Below the pieces are notes generated by a model, which saw only the letters and a list, made by a program, of their open reading frames with translations, did no database searches and was not told where the DNA came from. A stretch of 64,000 nucleotides of DNA, taken from NCBI RefSeq assembly GCF_000423465.1, contig NZ_AUIA01000018.1, positions 50,504 through 114,503 of the forward strand. The letters run 5' to 3'. The position numbers and the translations under genes are program-made. Within the stretch, counting starts at the first letter, position 1, and the number at the start of each line of letters is the position of its first letter. This document shows, piece after piece, positions 36,844 to 53,218 of the stretch. Source of the stretch: Propionicicella superfundia DSM 22317. Its GTDB lineage: Bacteria > Actinomycetota > Actinomycetes > Propionibacteriales > Propionibacteriaceae.

Positions 36844-37722
36844 ATGAAGCGGCGGGGACTGGTGACGGCCGCCGTGGGCGTCGTCGCCCTGGCCGCGGTG
36901 GCGACCGGACTTGTGGGCGTGGCCGTCCTTCTCGGCAGCGGCGGGCGAACCGTCGAGATCCCGTCCGACGAGTCGCCGCCGGCGACACCCGGCGCCGACA
37001 CGCAGGCGGCGTTCGCGCAGACCCGGGTCTTCTTCGGCCACCAGTCCGTGGGCGCCGACATCATCGGCGGCCTGTCCGCCGTGTACACGGGCACGTCGAC
37101 CTCGCCCGACCTCGTCGAGAGCCGCACGGCGCAGCCCGGGACGGGTGGAGTGTTCCAGCACGCCGCGGTCGGCGCCAACGGCGATCCGTCGGGCAAGATC
37201 ACCGACTTCGCCGCACTGTTGAACGGCGGCATCGGCGACGACGTCGACGTCGCGCTGATGAAGCTGTGCTACATCGACTTCACGTCGTCCACCGATCCGC
37301 GGGCGCTGTTCGAGGAGTACGCGACGACCATGGACGCCCTCGAACGGGCATACCCCGACGTCACATTCCTGTACACGACCGCCCCTTTGACGGTCGACCC
37401 GGGCTGGGCCCAGAAAGCGACGTCGACGTTCAAGGTGTGGCTCGGCAGGACGACGTCCAACACGCCCGAGAATCTCGTGCGCGGCCAGTACAACGACCTG
37501 ATCCGCGAAAGGTACGGCTCCACCGGGCGGCTGTACGACATCGCGGCCCTCGAATCGCGGCTCGACGACGGCTACCACGCGGGCAAGGAGTACGAGGGCG
37601 CCACCTACATGGTGATGAACCCCGACCTCGCCTCCGACGGCGCACATCTCAACGAGCGTGGGGCACGACTGCTCGCCGAAGGGCTCGTGCGACTCGTCGC
37701 GGCGCTCCCTCGCGACACCTGA
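36844..37722 (+). CDS. Membrane-anchored SGNH/GDSL-like hydrolase
   Basis: A 292-residue protein with an N-terminal signal anchor (residues ~8-32) and an extracytoplasmic domain. The block VFFGHQSVGADII supplies a candidate nucleophile serine, and DGAHLNERGARLLAE near the C-terminus gives the D-x-x-H pair of SGNH hydrolases. The FGHQSVG variant is seen in a poorly studied SGNH branch. A GAAGGA ribosome site stands 7 nt before the ATG. It could edit or add acyl groups on a surface glycan, given the SAT-like and ligase genes that follow. Substrate unknown. Confidence 0.75.
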   Translation: MKRRGLVTAAVGVVALAAVATGLVGVAVLLGSGGRTVEIPSDESPPATPGADTQAAFAQTRVFFGHQSVGADIIGGLSAVYTGTSTSPDLVESRTAQPGTGGVFQHAAVGANGDPSGKITDFAALLNGGIGDDVDVALMKLCYIDFTSSTDPRALFEEYATTMDALERAYPDVTFLYTTAPLTVDPGWAQKATSTFKVWLGRTTSNTPENLVRGQYNDLIRERYGSTGRLYDIAALESRLDDGYHAGKEYEGATYMVMNPDLASDGAHLNERGARLLAEGLVRLVAALPRDT

Positions 37723-37927
37723 GTCGCCCGTCCTCGACGGCGCCGGGAAGCCTGCCGTCAGGTCCGCGCCCGTCGACGAGGGCGCCCTCACGACGTCCCC
37801 GCGAGCGACACACGACCGCAGAGACCCGGTGCGATCCGCGGATCGATCCTCGCTGTCCTATCCTCACCTGGCAGACGAACCGCAGCGCACGACGGACAAT
37901 GGTCTGACGCGCAGAGGAGGTTGGATC

Positions 37928-38527
37928 ATGGAGCAGGACATCGTCGTCAGTCCCCCGTCGGCGTGGGACGCGAGGACGCTACGCGGTCTCCTCGACATCT
38001 GCGGCGAGGATCGCGCGGTCAACGGCCGCAGCCCGTTCCACCCCGCGTCGCAGGCCCTCATCGTCCACCGGCTCGGTGAATGGCTCGCACATCCGGGGCG
38101 CAATCGGCTCGTGGCCCGTGTGGGCGGCTTCGTGCAGCACGCAGCCGCCGCGTACGTCCGCAACTACATCGGCTACGAGATCTCACCGGGGGCGAAGATC
38201 GGCCGCAGGGTCCACTTCGCGCACCAGCACGGCATCGTCATCGCGCCCGAGACGGAGATCGGCGACGACGCCCTCATCCTCCACGAGGTGACCGTCGGGC
38301 TGCGCATGGACGCGCAGGGCGGGACGCCCGAGGCCGGCGCCCGCATCGGTGCCCGCGTCCGCATCGGCACCGGTGCCCGGATCCTCGGAGCGGTACGGAT
38401 CGGGGACGGCGCCAACATCGGCCCCAACGCCGTCGTCATGACGGACGTCCCCGAGAACGCCAGTGTGATCGCGGCTCCCAGCCGCGTGCTGCGGCTGCGC
38501 TCGGCGGACGACCGGGACGCGTCGTGA
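37928..38527 (+). CDS. Serine-O-acetyltransferase-like hexapeptide protein
   Basis: A 199-residue protein. A short helical N-terminus is followed by a left-handed beta-helix: YEISPGAKIGRRVHFAHQHG, VIAPETEIGDDALILHEVTVG and IGDGANIGPNAVVMTDVP. The layout resembles CysE/SAT, with a histidine in the HQHGIVI position that corresponds to the catalytic HGTGVVIG of SAT. It would acetylate a hydroxyl of serine or of a sugar. AGAGGAGG precedes ATG 37928. Its stop overlaps the start of the AMP-ligase gene (GTGA), tying it to that enzyme rather than to cysteine synthesis. Confidence 0.82.
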   Translation: MEQDIVVSPPSAWDARTLRGLLDICGEDRAVNGRSPFHPASQALIVHRLGEWLAHPGRNRLVARVGGFVQHAAAAYVRNYIGYEISPGAKIGRRVHFAHQHGIVIAPETEIGDDALILHEVTVGLRMDAQGGTPEAGARIGARVRIGTGARILGAVRIGDGANIGPNAVVMTDVPENASVIAAPSRVLRLRSADDRDAS

Positions 38528-39900
38528 CCCTCGCGGGACTGATCGGCGGCGACGAGCGCGCCGCGACACCCGCCGTGATCGACCCTGTCGGTGCCGTCTC
38601 CCGCGCGGACCTGTTCGCGCGGGCGACCGCGCTCGCGGCCGGGATCTCGGCGGCGGTCCCCGGCACCGCGCGGATCGGTGTCCGCACCAGCACCGACGCG
38701 CAGGGGGTCGTGGATGTCCTCGCCGCCCTGCTGTCCGGCCGCCCGGCCGCGATGCTCCCCGCCGACGCGAGCCCCGAGCAGCAGGCCGCGGCATCGGGCT
38801 GCGCGGCCCTGCTGCACGACGGCCTGATCACGCCCGTATCCGGCGTCGATCCGTCGCCGCGCCTCGACACCGGTTTCGGCATCCCTGCCGGAGGGTCACG
38901 CGAGGCGGTCGTCCTGTTCACGTCCGGGACCACCCACCTGCCGCGCGGCGTCCGCCTGACCGAGGCCGGTATCGTCGCGAACCTGACGGCGATGCTGCGC
39001 CTCGCCGTCCGCTGGGGACCGTCGGACAGGGTGGGCCAGATCCTCACCCTCTCCCATTCGTTCGGACTGTCGATGGCGCTGCTGGCGCTGGCGACCCGGA
39101 CACCGCTCGTCATGCTGCCCGACGGGCCCCCGTCGCGCCGGCTGGCGGCCGGGCTCACCGACGGCGAGGTGACCGTGTTCGCCTGCGTCCCGTACTACCT
39201 GCGGCTGATGGCCACGCGCGGGATCGAACTCGGCGGCGACGTCGCACCACGGCTCGCCCACCTCTACCTCGCCGGCGGCGGCATCGGCGACGACGACCTG
39301 GCGGCGGTCGTCCCCCGCTTCCGGGGCGAGACCTACCTCATGTACGGCTTCACCGAGGCGACCGCCCGCGTCGCGGTGCGTCGCGGGAGCGACGGCGCGC
39401 CGCCGGACTCGGTCGGCCTGCCGCTGCCCGGCACACACGTCCGCATCGTCGACGAGACGGGCGCGCCGGTCCCGGCGGGCACGACCGGCCGCATCCAGGT
39501 GTACTCGCCGAGCCTCATGATCGGCTATCTGGGCTCCGATCCGAGACCGCCCGGCGAGCCGGTGACCACGACCGACCTCGGGCACCTGGACGAGGCCGGA
39601 AACCTGTTCGTCACCGGCCGGGAGGCCGAGATGCTGAACTTCCGCGGCAACCGCGTCTCGGTGGTGGCGGTCGAGGCCGTCGTCAACCTCATTCCCGGGG
39701 TCCGCGAATCACTCCTGCACCCGGACGGACCCGGCGAGGACGCGCAGGGAGAACTGCTCGTCGTCGCCGCGGACGATGCCGACCAGCGGGCGATCCGGCG
39801 CCAGGTGTTGTCGGCCGTGACGCCGAAGGGACTCGTCCGGCAGGTGACGTTCGTCGCCGACCTGCCGCGCACGCGCTCGGGCAAGGCGTTGCGGCGCTGA
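38524..39900 (+). CDS. AMP-forming acyl/aminoacyl ligase (adenylation enzyme)
   Basis: A 458-residue ANL-superfamily adenylating enzyme, shorter than most. The P-loop reads TSGTTHLPRGV (133-143), replacing the usual G-x-PKG with H-L-P-R-G. Other landmarks are YGFTEATARVA (A5), TTDLGHLDEAGNLFVTGR (A7-A8) and the C-terminal catalytic Lys454 in RSGKALRR. It should activate a carboxylate as an adenylate and load it on a thiol, plausibly the carrier protein encoded at 43.7-43.9 kb. GTG 38524 overlaps the SAT-like stop. Confidence 0.85.
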   Translation: MTLAGLIGGDERAATPAVIDPVGAVSRADLFARATALAAGISAAVPGTARIGVRTSTDAQGVVDVLAALLSGRPAAMLPADASPEQQAAASGCAALLHDGLITPVSGVDPSPRLDTGFGIPAGGSREAVVLFTSGTTHLPRGVRLTEAGIVANLTAMLRLAVRWGPSDRVGQILTLSHSFGLSMALLALATRTPLVMLPDGPPSRRLAAGLTDGEVTVFACVPYYLRLMATRGIELGGDVAPRLAHLYLAGGGIGDDDLAAVVPRFRGETYLMYGFTEATARVAVRRGSDGAPPDSVGLPLPGTHVRIVDETGAPVPAGTTGRIQVYSPSLMIGYLGSDPRPPGEPVTTTDLGHLDEAGNLFVTGREAEMLNFRGNRVSVVAVEAVVNLIPGVRESLLHPDGPGEDAQGELLVVAADDADQRAIRRQVLSAVTPKGLVRQVTFVADLPRTRSGKALRR

Positions 39901-39942
39901 GCCTCACCGGCCCCGTCCGGTCGGTCCGGTCCCTTGCGGTCC

Positions 39943-39994
39943 GGTCCTGTGGTCTGGTCCTGTGGTCTGGTCCTGTGGTCTGGTCCTGTGGTCT
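39943..39994. repeat. 13-bp tandem repeat, four exact copies
   Basis: GGTCCTGTGGTCT is repeated four times head to tail, followed by a partial GGTCT. It starts 42 bp after the AMP-ligase stop, at the left end of an 886-bp gene-free stretch (39901-40786) that also holds the features listed next. Confidence 0.9.
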
Positions 39995-40005
39995 GGTCTG
40001 ATTCG

Positions 40006-40440
40006 GTTCTGTGGTTCGGGGGATGGTGCCGTGCGCAACCACCCGCCTCGCAAGCTCGGCGGGGGCCAGTCCCATCCGCGCTCACGGCACCATCCCCCCA
40101 ACCACAGAACCACCCGCCCAGCCCGACGGGAACCAGCCCCAACCACGCCCACGGCACCATCCCCCCAACCACAGAACCACCCGCCCAGCCCGACGGGAAC
40201 CAGCCCCAACGCACTGCGATCTGCGCCTTCGGAACCCCGTCCGAAGCCAGCCTCCTGATCAGCGCCCAGTCCTCCAAAGTGATCACTCTCCAATCGTTGA
40301 GTGTTCACTTTTCGAGCGCCGCTATCGATCAGTTCTCAAGCGCCGTCGACACCCCCGCCCAGCCCGACAGGAACCAGCCCCAACCACGCTCACGGCACCA
40401 TCCCCCGAACCACAGAACCACACGCCCAGCCCGGCGGAGT
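40006..40440. repeat. 67-bp repeat family with one inverted copy
   Basis: A unit containing CACGGCACCATCCCCC then AACCACAGAACCAC begins at 40083, 40150 (period exactly 67 bp) and 40391. The same core occurs inverted at ~40006-40033. Partial units (CGCCCAGCCCGACAGGAACC) flank the third copy. The insertion-sequence remnant at 40210-40351 splits the array. The units are too similar and lack spacers, so this is not CRISPR. Confidence 0.85.
40210..40351 (-). mobile_element. istA: IS21-family left end with 5' stub of istA
   Basis: Read on the minus strand from 40351 the sequence starts TGTCGACGGCGCTTGAGAAC, an IS21-like tip. The subterminal repeats GGCGCTTGAGAACTG and GGCGCTCGAAAAGTG follow, then GTG 40286 opening ITLEDWALIRRLASDGVPK and AQIAV. 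This matches the N-terminus of IS21 IstA transposases. Homology stops after about 26 codons, exactly where the 67-bp repeat resumes. The rest of the element is gone. Confidence 0.65.
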
Positions 40441-40538
40441 CAGCGAACCCCGCCCACCCACGCCCCGACCGTTCCCGAACCAGAGAAGCACCCCCGACAG
40501 CCCGCCGTGTGACCAGTTCACCGCCGAGGGCGCGCCGC

Positions 40539-40710
40539 TGACTGCCAGGTTGCGAGGCATATCAGCGCTGGCGTCGTGACCAGGAAGAGGTGACCGCCAC
40601 CTTGCGTGGCATACGACCCCCGGATCCGGGGGCGATAACCCGTGCAACGTGGCGGTCAGCCCGAGCCGACCCGCCAGCCCGGTCCCGTATGCCTCACAAC
40701 CTGGCAGTCA
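40539..40710. repeat. Nested palindromic intergenic repeat, copy 2
   Basis: The 172-bp element is bounded by a 23-bp inverted repeat with one mismatch (TGACTGCCAGGTTGCGAGGC... at 40539-40561 and its complement at 40688-40710). An inner pair (40591-40605 / 40644-40658) encloses CCCCCGGATCCGGGGG (40617-40632). It shares order and most of its sequence, including 25 identical bases before the inner right arm, with copy 1 at 21848-22006. It is longer and better preserved at its tips. Confidence 0.85.
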
Positions 40711-40786
40711 GCCCCACGCGGGCCGCGGGGCGGACGATCGCGAACCCGGCGCGGCCCGAACCGCCCCCGGCCACGGCCGGGGACGA

Positions 40787-41752
40787 TCAGATCGTCGTCC
40801 GCAGGTACTCCGCGTACGCGGCGCGACGCGCATACAGACCGAAGAACTTCTCCACGTCGCCGGCGGCGAGCCCGAGGCGCTGCGCGACCCGGGCCGGGTC
40901 GTCCCCCTCGTGCCAGGCCAGCCACAGCGCATCGCCCATCTCGACGGACGTCCCGTAGAAGTACTCCTCCTGGCTCTGCGGAGCGCTGAACGTGTCGGTC
41001 GTGGGCGGCCGGCTGCGGATCTCCTCGGGGACGCCGAGAAACTCCGCGAGGTCGTACACCTGGGTCTTGAGCAGTGGTCGCAACGGGAACGCCTCGCCGC
41101 ACCCGTCGCCGAACTTCACGAAGAACCCCTGGTCGATCTCGAGCCTGTTCGACGTGCCCACGACGATGAGGTTCTCCTCGTCGGCGATGCGGTACGTCAT
41201 CAGGGTCCGCACCCGCTGCTTCTGGTTGGTGGCGGCCATGATGGTGAGGAAATCGCGTCCGCCCAGCCGGTGGCGCCGCGCCTGCCCGTCGCGCACCGCG
41301 TTGAGGGCGAACGTCTGCAGCCGATCCCCGTCGCCGGTGGCCGGCTGGAACTCGACCGAGAACGTGTCCCCCGCGTCGGGGTCGAACCCGGGCTCGAGAC
41401 GCCGCACGACCGCCAGCCGGTCGTCGTAGCAGCCCAGCGCGTCGAGGACGGGTGTGATGTCGGTCTCGCGGCAGCGGACCCCGACGCTGTCGGCGGCGAG
41501 CCGCGCCAGCCCGGCCGTCTCGGCAGAGCTCTCCTTGTCGGGCAGGGTCACGCCCTGAACGCGCCCAGCGCCCAGAGCCCGCACGGCGAGGGCGACGCAG
41601 ACCGACGAGTCGATCCCGCCGCTGAGGGCGACGATCGCTCCGGTGCGGCGGAACCGCCGCACCGTGTCCCGGATGTCGGCGGCGAGCGCATCGGCCACGG
41701 CCTCGACGTCGTCGAGATGGACCGAACGGCCCGCGCTCTCACGGTCACTCAT
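40787..41752 (-). CDS. NAD-synthetase-like ATP-pyrophosphatase, cluster-associated
   Basis: A 321-residue NadE-family protein without a glutaminase domain. It has PP-loop LSGGIDSSV (43-51), NQKQRVRTLMTYRIAD, VVGTSNRLEIDQGFFVKFGDG and PLLKTQVYDLAEFLGVPEEI. The C-terminal PTTDTFSAPQSQEEYFYG is a variant I associate with NadE paralogues in surface-polysaccharide loci, not with housekeeping enzymes. It would adenylate a carboxylate and amidate it with ammonia. It lies 20 bp downstream of the AsnB-like amidotransferase, which could provide the ammonia or act on the same intermediate. It may simply be NadE; context argues otherwise. Confidence 0.82.
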   Translation of the reverse strand: MSDRESAGRSVHLDDVEAVADALAADIRDTVRRFRRTGAIVALSGGIDSSVCVALAVRALGAGRVQGVTLPDKESSAETAGLARLAADSVGVRCRETDITPVLDALGCYDDRLAVVRRLEPGFDPDAGDTFSVEFQPATGDGDRLQTFALNAVRDGQARRHRLGGRDFLTIMAATNQKQRVRTLMTYRIADEENLIVVGTSNRLEIDQGFFVKFGDGCGEAFPLRPLLKTQVYDLAEFLGVPEEIRSRPPTTDTFSAPQSQEEYFYGTSVEMGDALWLAWHEGDDPARVAQRLGLAAGDVEKFFGLYARRAAYAEYLRTTI

Positions 41753-41772
41753 GGGTACTCCCTATCCTTCGG

Positions 41773-43683
41773 CTACGCCACGCCGTACGTATCGGCGAGT
41801 ATCTCGACGCTGACGATCCACAGCAGGGCGAGGTCGTCGTGGAAGCTCGTCCGCCCCTGCCGCAGCTTGTTCACGAGCCACGCCACCCGCTTCGGGTCGA
41901 ACACCCCGTGCTCGCGCAGCGCGGCAGGCGCGAGGACGGCGTCGATCAGCTCCGCGCCCGGCACGGACCGGAACACGTCCCCCTCCGGAGCTGTGTACGG
42001 CTGCTTGACCCTGTCCCGGATCGCGGCCGGGACGTCATCGCCCACAGCACGCTTGAGCACCGCCTTCTCCTGCAGCCCCGCCAGCTTCGACTCCAGCGGA
42101 AGGGTGAGGGCGAAATCGACGACATCCTCGTCGAGGAACGGGTAACGGGCCTCGATGCTGTGCGCCATGTAGGGACGATCGCACTGGCTCGCGAGCAGGG
42201 ACGAGGCCAGGAAGTAGGTCACCTCGAGGTACTGGGCCTGCTCGACGGCCGACCAGCCGAGGTACGCCGCGGGAAGGCCGTCGCGCACTCGGGCGAGCAC
42301 CGTGTCGACCGTGAGCCCGGCCCTGTGCTCCGCGGCCAGGTACTGCGTGATCCGGAACGACGAGCTCCACCGGTTGAGGTGGGAGAACAGCGGGTCGTCG
42401 CGGCGATCGATGCCCTGCTCGTAGAACGCCCGCTCCACAGCCCGGCCGAGGTGGGACTGTTGCGCGAGGACATCGGTCAGCGCGGCGGGCAGCGTGTCGG
42501 AATCCGGGTCGCGGCTCCAGGCGTCCCGGATGGCCGCGATCTTGAAGAGGTCGTAGCCGCAGAACAGTTCGTCGGCCCCCTCGCCGCTGAGCACGGCGCG
42601 CGTGCCGTGAGCCTCGATGGTCGCGGCAAGCGCGATGGACGACGCGGAGGCGGTCCGCGTGAGCGGCTGCTCGGCATGCTGGACGGCCTCGACGAGAGTC
42701 GCGGCGACACTGCGGTCGCCGCACAGGATCGCCATGTGGTCCGTGTCGAACTCGGTGGCGGCGAGCGCCTGGAACGGCTCCTCGTCGAGCGCCGCCTGTG
42801 CGAACTGGATGGAGTAGCTCGTGATGCGCCCGGTGGGATGAGCCCCGCGGAGCAGGGCCAGGACCGCGCTCGAGTCGAGACCGCCGGACAGCAGCACCGC
42901 CGGATCGCCGTAGACCGGCACCCGCCGCTCCACCGCGCGCCCCAGCAGGTCACGGAGCCGAGCGGCCTGATCGGCGAAGGGAGCCGGGTCGCGCTCGGCC
43001 GCATAGCGGAACTGCCAGTAGGACGTTCGCTCCACCCCGGCGGCGCCGATCCTGACGTAGCCTCCGGGGCGCACGGTCTCGACACCCGCGTACACGGACC
43101 GGCCCGGGTGGGTACCCCAGAGGACGCCCACGTCGATGACGTCGGACAGGCTCAGCCTGGGATGCAGTCCCATGGCACGCAGGGACTTCACCTCGGAGGC
43201 GAAGGCCACGCCTCCGCCGGCCGTATGCGTCCAGTGCAGCGGCACGATCCCGAAGCGGTCCCGGGCCAGGAGCAACTCGGACGTCACGTCGTCCCACAGC
43301 GCGAAGGCGAACTGCCCCTTCAGCCGGGACAGCGCCGCGACGCCCCAGTGGATGAGCGCGTGCAGCAGCACCTCGGTGTCGCCGTCGGTGGCGAAGCGGC
43401 GTCCCTCGCGTTCGAGCTCGGTCCGCAATTCGCGGAAGTTGTAGATCTCGCCGTTGAAGGCCAGCAGGTGCCGGCCGGCGGCGTCGCGCATGGGCTGCGC
43501 CGAGGTGGGTCTGTCCACCATCGCGAGCCGTGCCGTCCCGAAGGTCGCCGAGCCCACCCGGTCACAGCGAGAGTCGTCGGGCCCGCGGTGCTGCACGGCA
43601 TCCAGGCCGGCGAGCACCGCGGCCTCGGAAGGCCGGGCCGGGCCGACGCCTCTGTCGCCCACCAGGCCGACGATGCCGCACAT
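41773..43683 (-). CDS. Asparagine-synthase-like glutamine amidotransferase
   Basis: A 636-residue two-domain enzyme. Cys2 (MCGIVG) is the class-II glutaminase nucleophile, with NGEIYNF and the D-x-x-TEVLL glutamine site. The synthase domain has PP-loop LLSGGLDSSAVLALL and SGEGADELFCGYD. It activates a carboxylate with ATP and transfers ammonia to give an amide. Paralogues in exopolysaccharide clusters (annotated amidotransferase 1 near exosortases) look similar. It starts 4 bp after the carrier-protein stop, so its substrate may be carrier-bound. ATG 43683 is fixed by the catalytic cysteine. Confidence 0.9.
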   Translation of the reverse strand: MCGIVGLVGDRGVGPARPSEAAVLAGLDAVQHRGPDDSRCDRVGSATFGTARLAMVDRPTSAQPMRDAAGRHLLAFNGEIYNFRELRTELEREGRRFATDGDTEVLLHALIHWGVAALSRLKGQFAFALWDDVTSELLLARDRFGIVPLHWTHTAGGGVAFASEVKSLRAMGLHPRLSLSDVIDVGVLWGTHPGRSVYAGVETVRPGGYVRIGAAGVERTSYWQFRYAAERDPAPFADQAARLRDLLGRAVERRVPVYGDPAVLLSGGLDSSAVLALLRGAHPTGRITSYSIQFAQAALDEEPFQALAATEFDTDHMAILCGDRSVAATLVEAVQHAEQPLTRTASASSIALAATIEAHGTRAVLSGEGADELFCGYDLFKIAAIRDAWSRDPDSDTLPAALTDVLAQQSHLGRAVERAFYEQGIDRRDDPLFSHLNRWSSSFRITQYLAAEHRAGLTVDTVLARVRDGLPAAYLGWSAVEQAQYLEVTYFLASSLLASQCDRPYMAHSIEARYPFLDEDVVDFALTLPLESKLAGLQEKAVLKRAVGDDVPAAIRDRVKQPYTAPEGDVFRSVPGAELIDAVLAPAALREHGVFDPKRVAWLVNKLRQGRTSFHDDLALLWIVSVEILADTYGVA

Positions 43684-43687
43684 GACG

Positions 43688-43942
43688 CTACGGACGGTTC
43701 GCCACGATGAATGCGACCACGCTGTCGACGCTCGCGAATGTGGACCGGACCTCTTCGGACGGCTCCAGCGGCCGGTCGATCTCCTCTTCGATGAAGACGG
43801 CGACCTCGGCAATGCCGAGCGAATCGAGGATCTCGTCGACCAGGGGCGCGTCATCGGCCAGCTCGTCCTCGTCCAACGGAACCAGGCGTTCGAGAATCAG
43901 GTCTCGCAGACGCCGCGTCACATCAGTAGCAGCATCAGTCAT
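43688..43942 (-). CDS. Acyl/peptidyl carrier protein
   Basis: An 84-residue four-helix carrier protein. Ser41 in EILDSLGIAEVAVFIEEE is the phosphopantetheine site (DSLG motif). Strongly acidic, as usual. First gene of the carrier / amidotransferase / NadE-like operon. No fatty-acid synthase genes are nearby, so it is probably dedicated to this locus and loaded by the AMP-forming ligase at 38.5-39.9 kb, although that gene lies in a separate, convergent operon. Confidence 0.9.
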   Translation of the reverse strand: MTDAATDVTRRLRDLILERLVPLDEDELADDAPLVDEILDSLGIAEVAVFIEEEIDRPLEPSEEVRSTFASVDSVVAFIVANRP

Positions 43943-44053: not shown

Positions 44054-44181
44054 CACAAACACATTTCGTATCTTCGCGACAGGGCCGCGGCTACGGCACA
44101 CGTACAATGGCCAATGCTCCATCCGGTCGCACGACAACTCCCCATCGTTGCGGCAAATCCCGCGGGACAGGATTCAGACCC

Positions 44182-45924
44182 ATGACCTTCCGGCACGTGC
44201 TCGCCATCGTGTGGCAACGACGCGTCCTCGCCCTCGCGACAGCACTGCTGGTGTTCCTCGCCGCGCTGCTGTACTCGCGACTCGCGCCCGTCACCTACGC
44301 GGCGACGGCGCAGCTCCGCTACAGCCCCGCGGCGACGTCGACCCTGGCCGGGAGCACCGGCTACGGATCCATCGCCCTGGACGTCGACCCCGACTACGTC
44401 ACCGGGCCCGAGATCGCCGAAGCGGCCGCGAAATCGCTCACCGGCGACAGTGCCGCCGCCGTCCAGGCGTCCATCACGACCGAACTCGTCGAAGGCGTCC
44501 GCTCCAGCAAGCTGAACGTGACCGCCACCGGCACGACGGCCGAGCAGGCGAAGGACCGGGCGAACGCCGTGGCGAAGGCCTACACCGACCACCTGGCCGC
44601 CCAGGTGACCGCCGGGGAGGAGAGCCTCCGCACGCAACTGACGACGCAGCAGAAGGCGCAGACGGACGCACTCAGCGCCCTGAACAAGAACGCCGACGAC
44701 CGGCTCGCGCAGCAGCGCTTCAACGACGCCAGTGCGCAGATCACCCAGTTGCAGACGCAGATCACCTCCATCGAGAGCGCCGGCGCGCCGGCGAGCATCC
44801 TGCAACAGGCCACGAACGGCACCGCACAGGGCGTGTCCCTGCTCACGCTCCTGCTGGTCGGGCTGGTGAGCGGTGTCATCGCCGGTGCCGGCATCGCGCT
44901 CATCCGCGAGCAGTTCGACGACCGGCTGCGCACGATCGACGACGTCAACGAGGCCATCGGCGGGCCCATCATCGCCGACATCGCCAAGGTCTCGCGCCAG
45001 GAGCTCGCGGTGCATCCGCTGCCCGCGGCCTCGCGCGTCCCGACGCCGTTCAACGAGAGCGTCCGGACGCTTCGCACCTCGCTGCAGGTCGTCTTCCCGC
45101 AGCGGCACGCGCTCTTCGCTTTGACGAGTTCCGAGCCGGGCGAGGGCAAGACCTTCCTCAGCGCCAACCTGGCCGTCTCGTTCGCCCACGCCGGCCGCAG
45201 CGTGATCCTCGTCGAGGCCGACCTGCGTCGCCCGCGGGTCGGCACGTACTTCAACCTCCCCGACGCCGCACCCGGGTTCGCCGATGCGCTGGAGCTCGAT
45301 CGCGACGGGGCGGCCATCGCCCGGACCCTCGTCGGCACCGGGTTCCCCAACCTGCGCATCCTGCCCGCGGGCAGCAGCAGGCAGGAGCCCGCCGACCTCC
45401 TCGCGGGCGATTCTCTCGGCACGGTGCTCGGCCGGTTGCGCGACATGGCCGACATCGTCATCCTCGACACGCCTCCAGGGCTGGCGCTCGCCGACGCCGC
45501 CATCGTCGGCGGCGAGACCGACGGGGTCATCGTCGTGGCGTCCCTGGGCCGCACGACCGGGACGGCCCTCAAGGGAACGCTTCAGACACTGCGAGCGAAC
45601 CGTGCCGAGGTGATCGGGGTCGTCGCCAACAAGTCCCGCCGGGCGAACGTGAAGAGCTACGGGGGGTACTACACGGAGGATCCGACGGCACCGGCGGGCG
45701 GCTCCGGGTCGGCCGCCGAGACCCCGCTGCCCGTGCCCGGGTCCCCCGCGTCCGCCGACCCCCTCGATGGTGAGGCGGGCGACGGCGCCCGCGTCGCTCC
45801 CGCTGCCGGGGAGCCGCTGGACGGGCACCCGGCCGACGGCGCGCCCACGCGCGACGCGCAGCCGGAGGGGCAGGCGCTCGACACGCCCCCCGCCCGGCCG
45901 TTCACCTCACGCCGGCACCACTGA
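44182..45924 (+). CDS. Wzz-type chain-length regulator fused to BY-kinase
   Basis: A 580-residue protein. Helices at ~14-34 and ~216-240 flank an extracytoplasmic coiled domain (Wzz). The cytoplasmic tyrosine-kinase part has Walker A EPGEGKT (318-324), Walker A' VILVEADLRRPR (341-352) and Walker B VILDTPPG. SYGGYYTED near residue 515 offers the tyrosine cluster for autophosphorylation. The last ~75 residues are a Pro/Ala/Gly/Asp-rich tail. It should control polysaccharide export and chain length together with the phosphatase at 49.1 kb. Its 3' end overlaps the convergent glycosyltransferase gene by 23 bp. Confidence 0.92.
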   Translation: MTFRHVLAIVWQRRVLALATALLVFLAALLYSRLAPVTYAATAQLRYSPAATSTLAGSTGYGSIALDVDPDYVTGPEIAEAAAKSLTGDSAAAVQASITTELVEGVRSSKLNVTATGTTAEQAKDRANAVAKAYTDHLAAQVTAGEESLRTQLTTQQKAQTDALSALNKNADDRLAQQRFNDASAQITQLQTQITSIESAGAPASILQQATNGTAQGVSLLTLLLVGLVSGVIAGAGIALIREQFDDRLRTIDDVNEAIGGPIIADIAKVSRQELAVHPLPAASRVPTPFNESVRTLRTSLQVVFPQRHALFALTSSEPGEGKTFLSANLAVSFAHAGRSVILVEADLRRPRVGTYFNLPDAAPGFADALELDRDGAAIARTLVGTGFPNLRILPAGSSRQEPADLLAGDSLGTVLGRLRDMADIVILDTPPGLALADAAIVGGETDGVIVVASLGRTTGTALKGTLQTLRANRAEVIGVVANKSRRANVKSYGGYYTEDPTAPAGGSGSAAETPLPVPGSPASADPLDGEAGDGARVAPAAGEPLDGHPADGAPTRDAQPEGQALDTPPARPFTSRRHH

Positions 45925-47038
45925 CGCCCGCCCGGCGCAGCACGTCGTCCATCGCCGCGACCCGGACGCTCCAGTCCTGGGCGTCGAACGGACCGACCTG
46001 TCCGGGAGGCGAGGCGATGAGGTCCGCGATCGCGCCGGGCAGGGTCTCGCGCGGCGCCACGGCCACCCCGGCGACGCCGTCCAGCTCGCGAAATCCCGCA
46101 ACGGGGGTGGACGCGATCGGCCTGCCGATGGCCTGATACTCGTAGAGCTTGATCGGATCGAGGCTCTCGGTGAAGTCGTTCACCACGTGCGGCACGACGA
46201 GCACGTCCGCATGCTGCAGATAGCCGGGGATCGCCGTGTGCGGCCTCGGCCCGAGCAGGACGACCCCCGCGGTTTCCCGGAGGCGCCTCGTGTGGGCGGT
46301 CGACAGCGCGTCGGGCCCGACGAACACGAGCGTCCCGCCGAGGCTCGCCAGACGCGTCCCGATGGCGACGCCGAGGTCGACGTCGAGCCGGTCCTCGTGC
46401 AGCGTGCCGACGTACAACGCCGTCGGCGCCGCCGGCAGGTCGTCGGGCCGCGGCTGCGGCCGCCGGTACCAGGCGACGTCCACCCCGTTCTGGATCAGCT
46501 CCACCGGCCGGATGGGCGACTTCGTCGCCAGCAGCCCCGTCGAGCACACGACGACGACGGTGCACTCCCGCATCAACCGGCCCTCGTTGGCCACGATCCG
46601 GTCGTGTTCGCGCGGCGACCGGTCCGCCTCCACCCAGTCGTCGGTGATGTCGTAGATCGCCGGCCACCCCGTGCCCGCGAGATGCGCCCAGTTCGGGTCG
46701 TTCACCCACAGCACGGGCCGCTCCATCCGGAGCCGGCGCGCCGCCCGCCGGACGCTCGCCGCCAGCATCCTGTCGGCGAGGGGACCGGCCACGCGGGGCA
46801 GCAGCTTCGTGGGCTGCAGCGCGTACAGCCGTCCGTCGTACCCGTCGAGACGACGCAACCCTCGTCCGAGGCGCGGCCGCACCCTGCGCCTCGCGGCGTG
46901 GAGCGGATCGGCGGGCGGCTCGACGAGGAGGACGCGCAGGTCGGGATCGCCGCGCAGCAGTCCGTCGAGGAGGTACTGGTTGCGCCGCCACACGTCGTCC
47001 CAGGACTCCAGCGAGCAGACGATGAGGTCACGGCTCAT
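45902..47038 (-). CDS. Glycosyltransferase, GT4-like
   Basis: A 378-residue GT-B glycosyltransferase. The N-terminal half has VCSLESWDDVWRRNQYLLDGLL; the C-terminal half has ALYVGTLHEDRLDVDL, VVLLGPRPHTAIPGYLQHADVLVVPHV and the E-x7-E-like ESLDPIKLYEYQAIGRPI. It resembles the group-1 family in teichuronic/EPS clusters. Sugar and acceptor unknown. ATG 47038 overlaps the stop of the preceding fused glycosyltransferase, so the two are made together. Confidence 0.85.
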   Translation of the reverse strand: MSRDLIVCSLESWDDVWRRNQYLLDGLLRGDPDLRVLLVEPPADPLHAARRRVRPRLGRGLRRLDGYDGRLYALQPTKLLPRVAGPLADRMLAASVRRAARRLRMERPVLWVNDPNWAHLAGTGWPAIYDITDDWVEADRSPREHDRIVANEGRLMRECTVVVVCSTGLLATKSPIRPVELIQNGVDVAWYRRPQPRPDDLPAAPTALYVGTLHEDRLDVDLGVAIGTRLASLGGTLVFVGPDALSTAHTRRLRETAGVVLLGPRPHTAIPGYLQHADVLVVPHVVNDFTESLDPIKLYEYQAIGRPIASTPVAGFRELDGVAGVAVAPRETLPGAIADLIASPPGQVGPFDAQDWSVRVAAMDDVLRRAGVSGAGVR

Positions 47039-49038
47039 CGCGCAGGGCCTGTCGCCGCCCGTCCTCGCCCGGCGCGGGGCGCGGTGAGGTAGAAGCGCAG
47101 CCTCCACCGCGCGTCGTCGCGCGCCTCGCCCGATGCCAGGACGCTGCGGACGGCCGCCCCCGCGACCGTCGCCGCACGGTAGACGATCTCCCCTGCGGCG
47201 CCGAAATGCTTGTGGATGTAGGCGAGCTGGGACGTATGGAACAGTCGCGAGCGAACCTGCGAGTCGGAACTCGTGCCCGCACCGACGTGCGTGCCGACGA
47301 CGGCCGGCACGTAGCCCGTGCGCCAGCCGCGCGCCACGGCCCGCCGTTGCCAGTCCGTCTCCTCGGCGTACAGGAAGAACCGCTCGTCGAACCCGCCGAC
47401 GTCCCGCAGGGCGTCGCCCTTCAGCAACAGGATCGACCCGATCACGAAGCCGTGACGGCGATCGAGCCGTCCCAGTCCCAGCGCCACGAGCCAGGCCCCC
47501 AGCGGACTGGGGAAGGGCCATACGACCCGGTCGGGGGTGCCCGAATCCGGTGCGGTCTGCCGCGGGGCGACGCAGGCGAGGCGCGAGTCGGCGTGCAGTT
47601 CGCGCTCCAGGGCGCCGACGGCGTCGGCGGCGATGGTCGCGTCGGGGTTCAGCAGCAGGACGTCGGCCGCGCCGCGACCGCGCTCGGCCAGCGAGCGGAG
47701 GGCGATGTTGACCGCCGCCGCGAACCCCAGGTTCGCGCCGGGATCGACGTAGTGGGCGCCGAACTCCTCCGCAAGGGCGCAGGTGTCCGGATCGGACGAG
47801 TTGTCCACGATCGTGATCGGGAAGCCGGCGAGCGGGGCGAGGGCGGCGCGCAACGGATCGGGCGACCCGTACGCGACGACGACCACCTCGGGGTCGGGCA
47901 GGTCACCCTGCGGGGGCTCCTCCGCGGCGAGGACCTCGTCGTAGAAGGCACGGTGCCGCTCCCCGATCGCCGCCCAACTGTACTGCCGGCAGTGCTCCAG
48001 CCCGGCCGCCCGCAACGCGGCCCACCGCGCCGGATCGGCGACCTCCGTGAGCGCCCGGCCGATGGCGTCCGGATCGCCGGGCGGGACGAGGATCCCGGCG
48101 TCGCCCACCACCTCGGGCAGGGCACCGCTCGCGCTGGAGATCACCGGCACCCCGGAGGCCATCGCCTCGACGACGACACGGCCGAACTGCTCCAGCCATC
48201 CCTTCGTCGGCAGCGACGGGACGACCAGAACGTCCAACTCCCGGTAGAAGGCGGGCAATTGCGCGCCAAGATGACCACGGAAGTCCACCCGCCCCGCGAT
48301 GCCCAGCTCATCGGCCAGGGCGGTCAGGGCGTCCCGCTCGGGACCGTCGCCGGCGACCTCCAGGGTGCAGTCGGGAGTGCGGGCGATCGCGCGCAGCAGG
48401 ACGTCCACACCCTTGTACGTCTCGAGCCTGCCCGCGTACCCCACCTTCAGCGGCGTGCGCGGAGCGTCGTGGGCACCCGGGGTGAAGACGTCCAGGTCGG
48501 TCCCCAGCCCGATCAGCTTCGGCTGCGCCCGCAGCCCCTTGTCCTGCAGGATCCGGCCGGCCTCGACGTTGCACACGTAGGCGTTCGCGGCCCGGCGCAG
48601 CGCCCACCGCTCGGTCCAGCGGATCGGGATCGGATACCGCTTGGGGATGTTCTGCGCCGCGTACATCACGACCGGAGCCGTCACGCCCCGCAGCCGCATC
48701 AGCGCGAGGACCTCGGCCGTCTGCGTGGCACACGGCTCCTCGTGCAGGTCGATGAGATCCCAGTGCTCCCCGAGCAGCCGCCACAGCGGCCGCGGGTCGA
48801 ACAGGAAGCCGTTGGGATGCGTGCCGAGCGTGCCGACCCCCACGACGAAGTCGTCGTCGCCCGGGTCGAGGTCGATGTCGGCTCCGCCCTCGTTCCACCT
48901 CGTCGCCGACACCATCGTCAGGTCGACCCCGCGCCGCACCAGTTCCCGCTCGCGCTCGCGCCAGGCGCTCACCACGCCGTGGTGCGCGGCCCGCAGCACC
49001 CGCAGCGGCCGTCCGGCTCCCGCAGCCACCTCGTCCAC
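47035..49038 (-). CDS. Bifunctional glycosyltransferase, GT4 plus GT2 fusion
   Basis: A 667-residue protein with two glycosyltransferases. Residues ~1-375 are GT-B (GT4): VGYAGRLETYKGVDVLLRAI, VEVAGDGPER-like LEVAGDGPERDAL and FGRVVVEAMASGVPVI. Residues ~380-620 are GT-A (GT2, rhamnosyltransferase-like): EVVVVAYGSPDPLR, VDNSSDPDT, ANLGFAAAVNIAL, LLLNPDATI and DERFFLYAEETDWQRRA. It could add two successive sugars to the growing lipid-linked repeat unit. GTG start at 49038. Confidence 0.88.
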   Translation of the reverse strand: MDEVAAGAGRPLRVLRAAHHGVVSAWRERERELVRRGVDLTMVSATRWNEGGADIDLDPGDDDFVVGVGTLGTHPNGFLFDPRPLWRLLGEHWDLIDLHEEPCATQTAEVLALMRLRGVTAPVVMYAAQNIPKRYPIPIRWTERWALRRAANAYVCNVEAGRILQDKGLRAQPKLIGLGTDLDVFTPGAHDAPRTPLKVGYAGRLETYKGVDVLLRAIARTPDCTLEVAGDGPERDALTALADELGIAGRVDFRGHLGAQLPAFYRELDVLVVPSLPTKGWLEQFGRVVVEAMASGVPVISSASGALPEVVGDAGILVPPGDPDAIGRALTEVADPARWAALRAAGLEHCRQYSWAAIGERHRAFYDEVLAAEEPPQGDLPDPEVVVVAYGSPDPLRAALAPLAGFPITIVDNSSDPDTCALAEEFGAHYVDPGANLGFAAAVNIALRSLAERGRGAADVLLLNPDATIAADAVGALERELHADSRLACVAPRQTAPDSGTPDRVVWPFPSPLGAWLVALGLGRLDRRHGFVIGSILLLKGDALRDVGGFDERFFLYAEETDWQRRAVARGWRTGYVPAVVGTHVGAGTSSDSQVRSRLFHTSQLAYIHKHFGAAGEIVYRAATVAGAAVRSVLASGEARDDARWRLRFYLTAPRAGRGRAATGPAR

Positions 49039-49119
49039 CTGCCGCCCCCCTCAGCTTCGGTCTGCGGCAAGACTATGCTGGCCAGACTGAAGATGGCATC
49101 CGGACGGAGGGGTCGAATC

Positions 49120-49779
49120 ATGACTCACGGGCCGACGTCCACGCTCGCCGCGCAGGGTGAGGCGCTGCCCGTCGCCCGGAATCGGCTGCCGTCGCTCATG
49201 TTCGTCTGCACGGCCAACAGATGCCGATCACCCCTCGCGGAGGCCCTGGCCCGCCGCATGCTGGCCAGGCACGGCCGAGCCGCGGGCGTGTCGTCCTCGG
49301 GCCTGCTCCAGGACGGGATGCCGACACCCGACACGGGCGTCGCGGTCGCCGCCGAATACGGACTGGACCTCACCGGTCATCGCAGCCGGCGCTTCCGGGA
49401 GTCGCTGCTCCCGCCCGACGCACTGATCCTGACCATGACGCGCGCGCAGGCGCGCGAGATCGTGGCGGCCTGGCCCGGCTTGTGGCCGCGGGTGTTCACC
49501 CTGAAGGGCTTCACCGAACTGGCGAGTGACGCCTCCGCCCCGCGACGCGCGGATTTCCTCGACTGGATCGACGCCGTGGGCTCGGGGCGGCAGCGGTCGT
49601 CGCTGCTCGGCAACGGCACCCCCGACGAGGTCCGCGACCCGATGGGCCGGCCGGCCACCGTCTGGCGCGAGGTGATCGAGGACCTGGGCCGTGAGCTCGA
49701 CGCGCTCCTCGCCCTCGCCTCGCCCCTGCTGCCCGCCGCACCCGTCGACGACGGGACCGGACCCGGGGCGCCCGGATGA
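49120..49779 (+). CDS. Low-molecular-weight protein-tyrosine phosphatase (Wzb-like)
   Basis: A 219-residue phosphatase, longer than the usual ~150. The P-loop C-x5-R-S is CTANRCRSP (Cys30-Arg36), and the general-acid loop reads VRDPMGRP. A 20-residue leader and an insertion (FLDWIDAVGSGRQRSSLLGNG) explain the size. It should dephosphorylate the BY-kinase of this locus to allow polymer export. GGAGGGG supports ATG 49120. The stop overlaps the polymerase ATG (ATGA). Confidence 0.88.
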   Translation: MTHGPTSTLAAQGEALPVARNRLPSLMFVCTANRCRSPLAEALARRMLARHGRAAGVSSSGLLQDGMPTPDTGVAVAAEYGLDLTGHRSRRFRESLLPPDALILTMTRAQAREIVAAWPGLWPRVFTLKGFTELASDASAPRRADFLDWIDAVGSGRQRSSLLGNGTPDEVRDPMGRPATVWREVIEDLGRELDALLALASPLLPAAPVDDGTGPGAPG

Positions 49780-51131
49780 CCCGCCTGCGTCCCGTCGCGG
49801 TGCGGAGCCGGTGGCGGACGGGCCGGCTTCGGCTCGGCGACATCGCCGCCGTCGCGATGGCCGTGGGCCTGCTGCTGCTGGTGGCCGCCGGCCTCGGGTT
49901 CGCGACCGCCGAGTTCGGGGAACTGGCCATCGTCGCCGCCATCGGCATCCTCGCCGTCGGCCTCGCATCCACCGACATCGCCCTCCTGCCGGTCCTGGCG
50001 TTCCCGGCGATCCTGCTCCCGATGCGTGCCGGGCCGCTCAGCGTGACCGACCTCGTCCTGATCGCCGCGACGCTCCCCGCGTTCCTTCTGTACCGGCGCG
50101 ACGAGGCCAAGCCGCTCCAGCCCCTTCTGTGGCTCGGCATCGCCTACCAGGCGATGCTCGTCCCGACGCTCCTGCTGAACCCGTATCTGTCGAACCTCGT
50201 CGAATGGGGTCACGAGCTGTTCATGGTGATCGGCTCGCTTCTCGTCGGCTGGGTCGTCGGCCGGCGCGGGTATGCCGGCGCCGCGCTCAAGCTCTACGTG
50301 GGGGCCTGCTCGCTCATCGGCATCGCCGCCTTCGTCGTCGGCGCCCTGATGCTCGTCCGGGAGGGATCCTTCGGGCCGGTCTACCTGTGGATCTTCCACA
50401 AGAACTTCACCGGCGACACGCTGGCCTTCGCGTTCCTCATCGCGTTCCTCCGCCCGGACTGGCTCGGCTGGAGCAAGCGCTTCGCCTACATCTCCCTCGT
50501 CGCCTGCGGCCTCGGCATCGCGGCGTCGGGCGCGCGCCAGGCCATGGTGTCCGTCGCCGTGACGGTCGTCCTGATGGCGCTGCGGGGCAAGGAAGGCGGG
50601 GGCGGCCGGGGGCGGATCCTGCTGCTCGCGCTCATCCCCGGCATGTGGTTCGTGCTGAACTCGCTGTCGGACCAGCTCGAGGCCTACGCCGAGGGAGACC
50701 GCTTCAACTCGGCCGCGCAGCGCCTCGAATGGTTCGGCCAGTCGCTCGACATCTGGGCCGAATCACCGGTGTTCGGCGTGGGGCTGCGCTGGTGGTACAC
50801 CGACCGGTTCTCCGGCGCGGGATTCCAGCCCCCCAACGCGATCTTCGAGATGCTGTCGTCGGCCGGTGTCGTCGGGACGATCGGCTTCCTCGTCCTCATG
50901 GGCGGCGGGCTCTGGTTCCTGCTCACGATCGACCCGCGCTACGGGAACCTCGCGGCGGCCATGCTGCTGGCGCGCTTCGTCCAGGGCCAGTTGGATCTGT
51001 ACTGGCTGGCCGGGCTCTCCTCCCTGCCGTGGATGATGGCCGGGCTGGTCATCGGAGTGCAGGCACTGCACCGGCACGGCCCGGCGTCCGCGCGGTCGTC
51101 ACCGGTGGGACAAGCACTTTCACCTCCCTGA
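49776..51131 (+). CDS. O-antigen ligase/polymerase-like membrane protein (Wzy family)
   Basis: A 451-residue protein with about twelve hydrophobic segments and one large loop. That loop contains the RLEWFGQSLDIWAESPVFGVGLRWW region, which corresponds to the R...W..a......GvG.g...........H/N..l pattern of the O-antigen ligase family. It would polymerise the repeat unit or transfer the polymer. Coupled to the phosphatase gene. Followed by a 156-bp gap with a -10-like TACTAT at 51230-51235 before the sugar-nucleotide genes. Confidence 0.85.
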   Translation: MTRLRPVAVRSRWRTGRLRLGDIAAVAMAVGLLLLVAAGLGFATAEFGELAIVAAIGILAVGLASTDIALLPVLAFPAILLPMRAGPLSVTDLVLIAATLPAFLLYRRDEAKPLQPLLWLGIAYQAMLVPTLLLNPYLSNLVEWGHELFMVIGSLLVGWVVGRRGYAGAALKLYVGACSLIGIAAFVVGALMLVREGSFGPVYLWIFHKNFTGDTLAFAFLIAFLRPDWLGWSKRFAYISLVACGLGIAASGARQAMVSVAVTVVLMALRGKEGGGGRGRILLLALIPGMWFVLNSLSDQLEAYAEGDRFNSAAQRLEWFGQSLDIWAESPVFGVGLRWWYTDRFSGAGFQPPNAIFEMLSSAGVVGTIGFLVLMGGGLWFLLTIDPRYGNLAAAMLLARFVQGQLDLYWLAGLSSLPWMMAGLVIGVQALHRHGPASARSSPVGQALSPP

Positions 51132-51287
51132 CGGGCACTCGCCCACCGCACCTCCGTCCGGTCCGGCCCGACGCCGGCGTCGGCAGATCTTTCGGTCCGG
51201 ACACCTCGCCGGGCGGCTCGATCCGGGTTTACTATCGCCGCGTCGCGTCACTCGGCGCGGCGTCGACGGTCGGCCCAAGGGGGGACG

Positions 51288-52298: not shown

Positions 52299-53218
52299 CG
52301 CGACCGGGCGGCGGCACCGTCACGGTGACGGGTGCGAGCGGGTTCGTCGGCGCACATGTCGTGGAGCTGCTGCACGAGCGCGGGCTCGAGGTCGTCGGCG
52401 TCGTCGACCAGGACGATCCCGCCGGCGAAGCCGACGACCTGGTGATCGCCGACCTCGCGGCGGGTTTCCCGGCCGAGGCCCTGAGCGACGTCGTCATCCA
52501 CCTCGCGGGCCTGACCGCCGTCGGCCCGTCCTTCGCGGAGCCCCAGCGCTACCTGGAGTCCAACAGCGCCATGGTCACCCACCTGTGCGAGACCGTCCTG
52601 TCCTCCGGTCGGCCGGTCCGCACGCTCGTCGCGGGCAGTGCGGCGGTGTACGGGGGTGCGTCCGGCGACACGCCGCTCGACGAGTCGGCCCCGCTGCGGC
52701 CCGCCTCGCCGTACGCCGTGAGCAAGGTGCTCGTCGAGTACCAGGTCGGCTACTACCGCACCCGCGGCCTGGACGCCGTCGTGATGAGGCCCTTCGGCAG
52801 CCTCGGCCCCGGGCAGGGCACGGGATTCCTCGTCCCCGACCTCACCGCCAAGGTGCAGGCGCTGGCGCCCGGGGAGCCGCTGCCCACCGGCCCGCTGGAC
52901 ATGGAGCGCGACTACACCGACGTGCGGGACGTCGCGCGGGCCTATGTGGAGGTCGCGCTCGCCGAGCGTCCGGCCCACGACGTGTACAACGTGGCCTCGG
53001 GGCGGGCCGTCGCGGTCCACGACATCCTGGCCCTCGTCTGCGCGTCGCTGGGACGTCCCGTGCCCGCCCTCGCCATCGACCCCGCCCGCGCGCGGGCAGC
53101 AGATCCCAGCCGCGTCGTCGGGGACGCGTCCCGGCTGCGGCGCGAGTTCGGCTGGACACCCCGGATCCCGCTCGCGACCTCGATCACGGACTATCACGAA
53201 GGCTTGGAGCAGGCATGA
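52295..53218 (+). CDS. GDP-6-deoxy-4-keto-mannose reductase-like NAD-dependent epimerase
   Basis: A 307-residue extended SDR: TGASGFVGAHVVELL near the N-terminus, VAGSAAVYGG and the catalytic SPYAVSKVLVEY, then a C-terminal substrate domain with RDYTDVRDVARAYV. Pairing with gmd (GTGA overlap) suggests an RMD-type enzyme giving GDP-rhamnose or a related sugar; a fucose synthase or C4-epimerase is possible. The next gene starts inside its stop. Confidence 0.85.
   Translation: MTRPGGGTVTVTGASGFVGAHVVELLHERGLEVVGVVDQDDPAGEADDLVIADLAAGFPAEALSDVVIHLAGLTAVGPSFAEPQRYLESNSAMVTHLCETVLSSGRPVRTLVAGSAAVYGGASGDTPLDESAPLRPASPYAVSKVLVEYQVGYYRTRGLDAVVMRPFGSLGPGQGTGFLVPDLTAKVQALAPGEPLPTGPLDMERDYTDVRDVARAYVEVALAERPAHDVYNVASGRAVAVHDILALVCASLGRPVPALAIDPARARAADPSRVVGDASRLRREFGWTPRIPLATSITDYHEGLEQA

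What the first reader, a model, noticed from the sequence alone, without database searches (positions are those of the whole stretch)
36844..43942. Carrier-protein, AMP-ligase, AsnB-like and NadE-like gene set: a likely undescribed amide-forming decoration pathway
Two convergent operons bring together an SGNH hydrolase, a SAT-like acetyltransferase and an adenylating ligase with an altered P-loop (THLPRG), facing a carrier protein, a glutamine amidotransferase and a NadE-like amidase/ligase with the TDTFSAPQSQEEYF variant. None belongs to core NAD, Asn or Cys synthesis by context. The simplest model is a small acid loaded on the carrier, amidated in one or two ATP-dependent steps and moved to the adjoining exopolysaccharide. 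I do not know a described product for this set in actinobacteria.
Basis: inference. Interest (0 to 1): 0.72.

Follow-up and report, generated by a model that had tools for sequence, protein, structure and literature searches.

The report
Six-gene acyl-amide cassette beside sugar-coat genes
Six genes that sit together beside sugar-coat genes in this and other actinobacteria are predicted to load a small acid on a carrier protein, turn it into an amide and likely pass it to the sugar coat; the four core genes also lie in a row in root-nodule bacteria, and the product is unknown.

Summary
The six genes are real, at the stated places, in two convergent groups (SGNH > SAT-like > ligase; ACP > AsnB-like > NadE-like). 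They are not housekeeping copies: the genome has other nadE, asnB and cysE genes, and 18 of 18 related cassette genomes tested have another nadE. The set travels together: in 21 actinobacterial loci AsnB is in 21, ACP 20, ligase 19, SGNH 18, SAT-like 16; 15 control regions have none. Gene order is reshuffled and two divergent core types occur. The core AsnB-ACP-ligase-NadE also lies in a row on rhizobial megaplasmids; by inference this includes S. meliloti SMb20650/SMb20651, where the ligase is reported to acylate the ACP (PMC7232532, passages). EPS-type genes lie near 15 of 21 loci (0 of 15 controls), but near none of 3 alphaproteobacterial loci. The 'altered P-loop' is a variable residue, not a hallmark. 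Best model: a carrier-bound acid is amidated with ATP, then moved to the EPS by an acyltransferase and an extracytoplasmic SGNH enzyme. Substrate, order and product are inferred. My searches found no paper describing the set. New variant of a known kind; interest about 0.6.

The parts
36844..37722 (+). SGNH-fold enzyme with an N-terminal hydrophobic helix, predicted extracytoplasmic; GHQS in place of GDS
37928..38527 (+). SAT-like left-handed-beta-helix (hexapeptide) acyltransferase, not a serine acetyltransferase by score and residues
   Evidence: PF00132; TIGR01172 99.7 bits against cut-off 210.65; Asp and RHP motif of the genome's own CysE copies lost
38524..39900 (+). AMP-forming ligase (GTG start), expected to load an acid on the ACP
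   Evidence: PF00501 E 5e-36; 90 listed clusters with E below 1e-80, then a gap to 1e-25; K454 invariant
39901..40786 (.). convergent intergenic gap with repeats
   Evidence: 13-nt tandem array and 67-nt repeats; 29-nt element in 4 copies, no other match in the genome at up to 2 mismatches
40787..41752 (-). NadE-like PP-loop amide synthetase, PRK00876-like subfamily, with an insertion of about 55 residues between 106 and 175
41773..43683 (-). AsnB-like glutamine-dependent amidotransferase, MCGIV start
   Evidence: TIGR01536 397.7 bits over cut-off 267.1; catalytic Cys invariant in 25 cassette AsnB proteins; start read from the sequence
43688..43942 (-). acyl carrier protein with DSL phosphopantetheine serine, 4 nt from AsnB-like
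   Evidence: PF00550 20.1 bits, just under cut-off 20.8; DS motif in the aligned cassette ACPs
44107..45924 (+). context: Wzz/BY-kinase of the adjoining EPS locus, divergent from the ACP
   Evidence: TIGR01007 118.8 bits over cut-off 108.05, PF02706
45902..56158 (.). context: EPS locus with glycosyltransferases, LMW phosphatase, Wzy_C, sugar dehydratases/epimerases, C-methyltransferase, dTDP-sugar 3,5-epimerase

Best explanation
The six genes form a co-inherited cassette that likely builds an amidated acyl group on a small carrier protein and is predicted to attach it to the exopolysaccharide made next door. Step 1 (supported by the reported S. meliloti pair): the AMP-forming ligase adenylates a carboxylic acid and loads it on the ACP. 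Step 2 (inferred): the AsnB-like enzyme, with its own glutaminase, amidates a free carboxylate of the carrier-bound or precursor acid. Step 3 (inferred): the NadE-like PP-loop enzyme, which has no glutaminase of its own, makes a second ATP-dependent amide bond with ammonia or another amine. Step 4 (inferred, actinobacteria only): the hexapeptide acyltransferase moves the acyl group to a sugar in the cytoplasm, and the membrane-anchored SGNH enzyme moves or trims it outside. Which acid is used is unknown.
For: Co-inheritance: AsnB 21, ACP 20, ligase 19, SGNH 18, SAT-like 16 of 21 actinobacterial loci, against 0 of 15 controls; gene order is reshuffled while membership is kept. Core NadE, AsnB, ligase and ACP distances correlate at r 0.89-0.97 over 22-25 loci. 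An asnB-acp-ligase-nadE row lies on proteobacterial plasmids. Paralogy: other nadE, asnB and cysE in this genome, another nadE in 18 of 18 related cassette genomes tested. Ligase-ACP pairing: passages of PMC7232532. EPS-type genes near 15 of 21 loci, 0 of 15 controls. PP-loop, glutaminase Cys and ligase Lys are invariant and the carrier Ser is kept. One PPTase-family (PF01648) gene in the genome.
Against: I found no substrate, product or mutant phenotype. [quoted passage not shown] which acyl group was found on SMb20651 I did not see. EPS-type genes are near none of the 3 alphaproteobacterial loci, and SGNH and SAT-like were not found in the 4 proteobacterial loci. SAT-like is missing from 5 and SGNH from 3 of 21 loci. 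The A-type ligase arginines R227, R232 and R286 are not conserved in B or proteobacterial ligases, so the acid may differ between types. The mirror-tree has no species-tree control, and within type B alone r falls to 0.44-0.87. Two amide-forming enzymes for one product is an assumption.
Confidence: 0.42

Rival explanations
1. The cassette makes a free small molecule (an amidated acyl metabolite, signal or siderophore-like compound) or a modified lipid that is released from the ACP, and its place beside EPS genes is incidental or regulatory.
For: The four-gene core stands without EPS-type hits in the 3 alphaproteobacterial loci scanned; in S. medicae it lies between sugar ABC transporter genes and minCDE. 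SMb20650 is discussed as a fatty acyl ligase. The SGNH enzyme could act as an exported esterase.
Against: 15 of 21 actinobacterial loci are near EPS-type genes against 0 of 15 controls (11 of 17 if the four loci that gave the queries are left out). The Roseateles-named locus has glycosyltransferase and flippase genes nearby, and a gene annotated as lipopolysaccharide biosynthesis lies about 11 kb from the S. medicae core.
Confidence: 0.3
2. The NadE-like and AsnB-like genes do ordinary NAD and Asn synthesis as extra copies, and the gene set is a chance neighbourhood.
For: Fold and PP-loop residues are those of NAD synthetase; AsnB-like is over the TIGR01536 cut-off.
Against: Separate copies exist; the set recurs in 21 loci with shuffled order; the NadE-like forms a subfamily with its own invariant loop residues and insertion.
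Confidence: 0.08
3. A Dlt-like system: the ligase and ACP act as DltA and DltC, and the SGNH enzyme as DltD, passing an acyl group across the membrane through an MBOAT protein.
For: Ligase, carrier and an SGNH-fold enzyme with an N-terminal helix are all present.
Against: No MBOAT (PF03062) match in this genome (assembly 97.97% complete); Dlt has no AsnB or NadE (recalled).
Confidence: 0.07

Closest known systems
S. meliloti pSymB ligase/ACP pair SMb20650/SMb20651 and its gene row
   Same: Same four core genes in a row (asnB, acp, ligase, nadE; L138); ligase reported cotranscribed with the ACP gene and giving acylated ACP in E. coli (passages of PMC7232532).
   Different: SGNH and SAT-like not found in the S. 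medicae counterpart (L118); core proteins about 25-40% identical to the window type; ACP function described as needing further study (passage of PMC5686131). That this row is SMb20650/51 is inferred: it is the only pSymB ACP place I found with a ligase beside it.
XrtA/PEP-CTERM EPS ligase and amidotransferase (TIGR03098, TIGR03108); asparagine synthetase genes in floc EPS clusters
   Same: AMP ligase and AsnB-like enzyme in EPS gene sets; a conserved EPS cluster with two asparagine synthetase genes in Zoogloea and Aquincola is mentioned in a passage of PMC9012009. S. medicae and two B ligases match TIGR03098 best or second best.
   Different: Scores far under the cut-offs (window AsnB 303 of 816.9, window ligase 77.4 of 592.35); no exosortase match in this genome; a NadE-like partner is not part of that set (recalled).
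OxyD-type malonamate formation (passage of PMC6164072) and glutarimide amidotransferases (recalled)
   Same: An amidotransferase of the AsnB kind (kind recalled) gives an amidated starter acid.
   Different: Polyketide pathways; no NadE-like, SAT-like or SGNH partner and no EPS (recalled).
NAD synthetase, PRK00876/NF002048 subfamily
   Same: Same fold and PP-loop; one B and one proteobacterial member tested are over the model's cut-off (497.5 and 531.6 bits).
   Different: In the 19 genomes checked the cassette member is not the only nadE; it sits beside AsnB, ACP and ligase, with an insertion and a changed C-terminal loop.

Membership tests
NAD synthetase (NadE) | PP-loop SGGxDS and NAD synthetase fold | tested here: met
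NAD synthetase (NadE) | NCBIfam NF002048 curated cut-off | tested here: not met
   Window 309.2 against 313; one B and one proteobacterial member above it; it does pass TIGR00552, 119.8 against 63.65
NAD synthetase (NadE) | Housekeeping role (only nadE of the genome) | tested here: not met
   Second nadE at C3:319827 and in 18 of 18 other genomes tested
NAD synthetase (NadE) | Amidates nicotinate adenine dinucleotide | not testable with these tools
   needs enzyme assay
Asparagine synthetase B | Class II glutaminase Cys and synthetase domain over TIGR01536 cut-off | tested here: met
   397.7 against 267.1; Cys invariant in 25
Asparagine synthetase B | Acts on aspartate | not testable with these tools
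   another AsnB is at C3:146348
Serine acetyltransferase (CysE) | TIGR01172 cut-off | tested here: not met
   99.7 against 210.65; two other genes of this genome are over it
Serine acetyltransferase (CysE) | Asp-His and Arg-His-Pro motifs of the active site (roles recalled) | tested here: not met
   His kept; Asp and RHP absent in the 9 cassette proteins aligned (9 of the 16 loci with a SAT-like), by comparison with two CysE copies of this genome
SGNH hydrolase/transferase | SGNH fold | tested here: met
SGNH hydrolase/transferase | Ser, Gly, Asn, Asp-x-x-His residues (block assignment mine) | tested here: met
   S68, G110, N112, D265, H268 invariant in 39; block I reads GHQS, not GDS
Dlt D-alanylation-type system | MBOAT membrane acyltransferase | tested here: not met
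   PF03062 without match in the genome (assembly 97.97% complete)
XrtA/PEP-CTERM EPS system | Exosortase in the genome; TIGR03098/TIGR03108 cut-offs | tested here: not met
   PF09721 without match; scores under cut-off
Acyl carrier protein | Phosphopantetheine serine in a DS motif | tested here: met
   DSL in A, DST in B and proteobacterial ACPs
Acyl carrier protein | PF00550 curated cut-off | tested here: not met
   20.1 against 20.8, just under
Anti-phage defence systems (PADLOC) | Any model match at E 0.001 | tested here: not met
   0 families for all six

The most novel reading that the evidence does not exclude
An undescribed biosynthetic pathway, shared by actinobacteria and rhizobia, in which a NAD-synthetase-like enzyme has been turned into an amide synthetase that works on carrier-protein-bound acids in tandem with an AsnB-like enzyme; two different PP-loop enzymes act on one acyl group, and actinobacteria then use the product to decorate their exopolysaccharide.
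Probability: 0.3. Interest if true: 0.78.

Novelty: new variant of a known kind. Interest (0 to 1): 0.62.

Why it matters
Proteins of this NadE subfamily are named NAD(+) synthase in public genomes, although in the 19 cassette genomes checked they are not the only nadE and sit in a carrier-protein gene set. If the model holds, many of these names are misleading, a new amide-forming step on carrier proteins exists, and two orphan proteins of S. meliloti gain a pathway. The four-gene row in a tractable laboratory strain makes the question directly testable.

Tried and rejected
Dlt-like model: set aside for lack of an MBOAT match. XrtA/PEP-CTERM membership: rejected on cut-offs and no exosortase match. 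Defence system: no PADLOC match. Serine acetyltransferase: rejected on score and residues. Altered P-loop as a hallmark: rejected, the residue varies. A dicarboxylate reading from ligase arginines R227, R232 and R286: kept only as a weak hint, because they are invariant in A type but not in B or proteobacterial ligases.

Searches that gave little: a class-wide ligase search of 394 genomes (query P0187, not the window ligase) found three genomes, all known already. In one search, 229 places encode a relative and the best 80 were kept; 77 of these carry distant ligases only, and none of the 77 has a hit to the other five genes in the flanks held, some of them short. Literature searches for the gene combination gave no description: searches found no paper, 41 and 61 one unrelated paper each (listing only), 84 two papers of which passages were read. 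Searches gave papers on EPS flocs and amidotransferases (listings; passages of PMC9012009, PMC6164072 and PMC13284220 read). Subscription papers are mostly not held, and the 2009 paper on SMb20651 is not held, so I know it only through citing papers.

Limits: the HMMs were trained on hits from the same pool of loci. The 21 loci were chosen for having the ligase or the NadE-like. The 15 controls are one 20-kb stretch each from 15 of 18 related genomes. EPS queries came from four of the loci tested (window, L101, L103, L108). L100 duplicates L013 and was dropped; L122 is a second S. medicae locus and was not counted. In some searches the ACP row of L106 is a wrong fragment; the right domain, with DST, is. 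L105 is cut by its contig end. Cellulomonas and Microbacterium genomes (L014, L015) were not tested for a second nadE. PF00550 missed the pSymB operon's own ACP, so other divergent ACPs there may be missed too.
Full report
What is there. SGNH-like 36844-37722, SAT-like 37928-38527 and the ligase 38524-39900 run on the + strand; ACP 43942-43688, AsnB-like 43683-41773 and NadE-like 41752-40787 run on the - strand. SAT-like and the ligase overlap by 4 nt; ACP and AsnB-like are 4 nt apart; AsnB-like and NadE-like are 20 nt apart. The groups converge on an 886-nt gap with repeats. Profile matches: PF00132, PF00501, PF02540, PF00733 with GATase, and PF00550 just under its cut-off; SGNH has none.

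Not housekeeping. The genome (3.62 Mb, 23 contigs, 97.97% complete) has another NAD_synthase locus at C3:319827 in a 701-aa frame, another AsnB at C3:146348 and two serine acetyltransferases over the cut-off. Each of the 18 related genomes tested also has a further strong NAD_synthase match away from the cassette (18 of 18; the Cellulomonas and Microbacterium genomes were not tested).

The set travels together. In a sample of 293 genomes of the order, the window-type ligase is found in 4 at E 1e-60. The same 4 have NadE-like proteins of 68-100% identity at most about 0.9 kb away. A further 15 genomes have a NadE-like of 42-46% identity. I took stretches of up to 20 kb round these plus three named loci (Micropruina glycogenica, Cellulomonas sp. 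73-92, Microbacterium ihumii). With the Micropruina duplicate dropped and the window added, there are 21 loci. NadE-like and AsnB-like are in 21, ACP in 20, ligase in 19, SGNH in 18, SAT-like in 16, all six in 13. Misses: SGNH in L014, L103, L105; SAT-like in L105, L110, L112, L113, L116; ligase in L105, L114; ACP in L105, whose contig ends there. Fifteen control stretches from related genomes have none of the six. Gene order differs between loci while the members stay. The cassette as a whole is sparse: 4 and 15 of 293 genomes; a class-wide sample of 394 added none.

Two core types. Between-locus distances of NadE-like, AsnB-like, ligase and ACP correlate at r 0.89-0.97 over 22-25 loci (21 actinobacterial and 4 proteobacterial, less misses; 0 of 999 label shuffles as high). 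Within type B alone r is 0.44-0.87. Species relatedness was not corrected for. SGNH does not follow this split (A-A 41%, A-B 38%), so the same accessory enzyme goes with both core types.

Proteobacteria. tblastn of NadE-like against plasmids found 116 records, 76 of them Sinorhizobium. Annotated loci of Nitratireductor, Shinella, Sinorhizobium medicae and one record named Roseateles show one row asnB - acyl carrier protein - adenylate-forming ligase - nadE; a DNA search with it found 97 records, 88 with at least 80% of it. SGNH and SAT-like were not found in the 4 loci scanned (L118-L121). Three have an unnamed 358-370 aa protein upstream; the one tested has no NCBIfam or Pfam match. In S. meliloti 1021 pSymB the row lies at 1450586-1455388. 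PF00550 finds two other carrier-like places on pSymB and misses this one; neither of those two has a ligase near it. So I infer that this row holds SMb20651/SMb20650. [quoted passage not shown] coli led to acylated SMb20651, and that it does not replace FadD. A passage of PMC10315480 lists smb20650 among fatty-acid-activation genes that go down under attack by Myxococcus xanthus. A passage of PMC5686131 says that the function of SMb20651 needs investigation. I did not see which acyl group was found, and a fatty acid is not excluded.

EPS neighbourhood. With ten EPS query proteins, 15 of 21 cassette loci have hits and 0 of 15 controls; without the four loci that gave queries it is 11 of 17. Wzx/Wzy/Wzz-type hits are in 12 of 21 (8 of 17 without those four). 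Of the 4 proteobacterial loci only the one named Roseateles has hits. In the window the cassette abuts Wzz/BY-kinase, glycosyltransferases, Wzy_C, sugar dehydratases, a C-methyltransferase and an epimerase.

How it likely works. The ligase loads an acid on the ACP (supported by the sister pair). AsnB-like amidates with glutamine nitrogen; a precedent for an amidated starter acid is OxyD (passage of PMC6164072; glutarimide pathways recalled). NadE-like makes a further ATP-dependent amide. In actinobacteria SAT-like would transfer the acyl group and the anchored SGNH enzyme would act outside. Everything after loading is inference.

Novelty. The searches I ran in the held library found no paper on the combination. 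EPS clusters with asparagine synthetase genes are known (passage of PMC9012009). The parts are of known kinds; the combination, its spread and the use of a NadE-like protein in a carrier set are new to me. I call it a new variant of a known kind.

Noticed in passing
window 39901-40786: Convergent gap with a 13-nt tandem array and a 29-nt element in 4 copies (3 on +, 1 on -) with no other match in the genome at up to 2 mismatches.
   Followed up: partly
window 44107-56158: EPS locus with a sugar C-methyltransferase (PF08484), two dehydratase/epimerase genes and a dTDP-sugar 3,5-epimerase, suggesting a branched deoxysugar.
   Followed up: partly
window 10758-10855: TPP riboswitch on the + strand.
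   Followed up: no
L104 2227-3885, L106 3767-5245, L107 2270-4081, L109 1998-3812: A second AsnB-like gene, about 30% identical to the window's, within 10 kb of the B-type cassette.
   Followed up: no
L104 5456-7294: PIG-L deacetylase domain (PF02585) beside the B-type cassette; similar ORFs in L107, L108, L109 and L115 by clustering.
   Followed up: no
L119 7095-8171, L120 7032-8144, L121 7054-8163: Unnamed 358-370 aa protein directly upstream of asnB in three proteobacterial rows; no Pfam or NCBIfam match for the one tested, L121.
   Followed up: partly
window 61445-63996: A 660-aa protein that by eye resembles a polymorphic toxin, with a small repeat-like neighbour; not searched.
   Followed up: no
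P0249, P0250, P0252, P0287: SGNH homologues with an extra DUF4082 (PF13313) domain.
   Followed up: no
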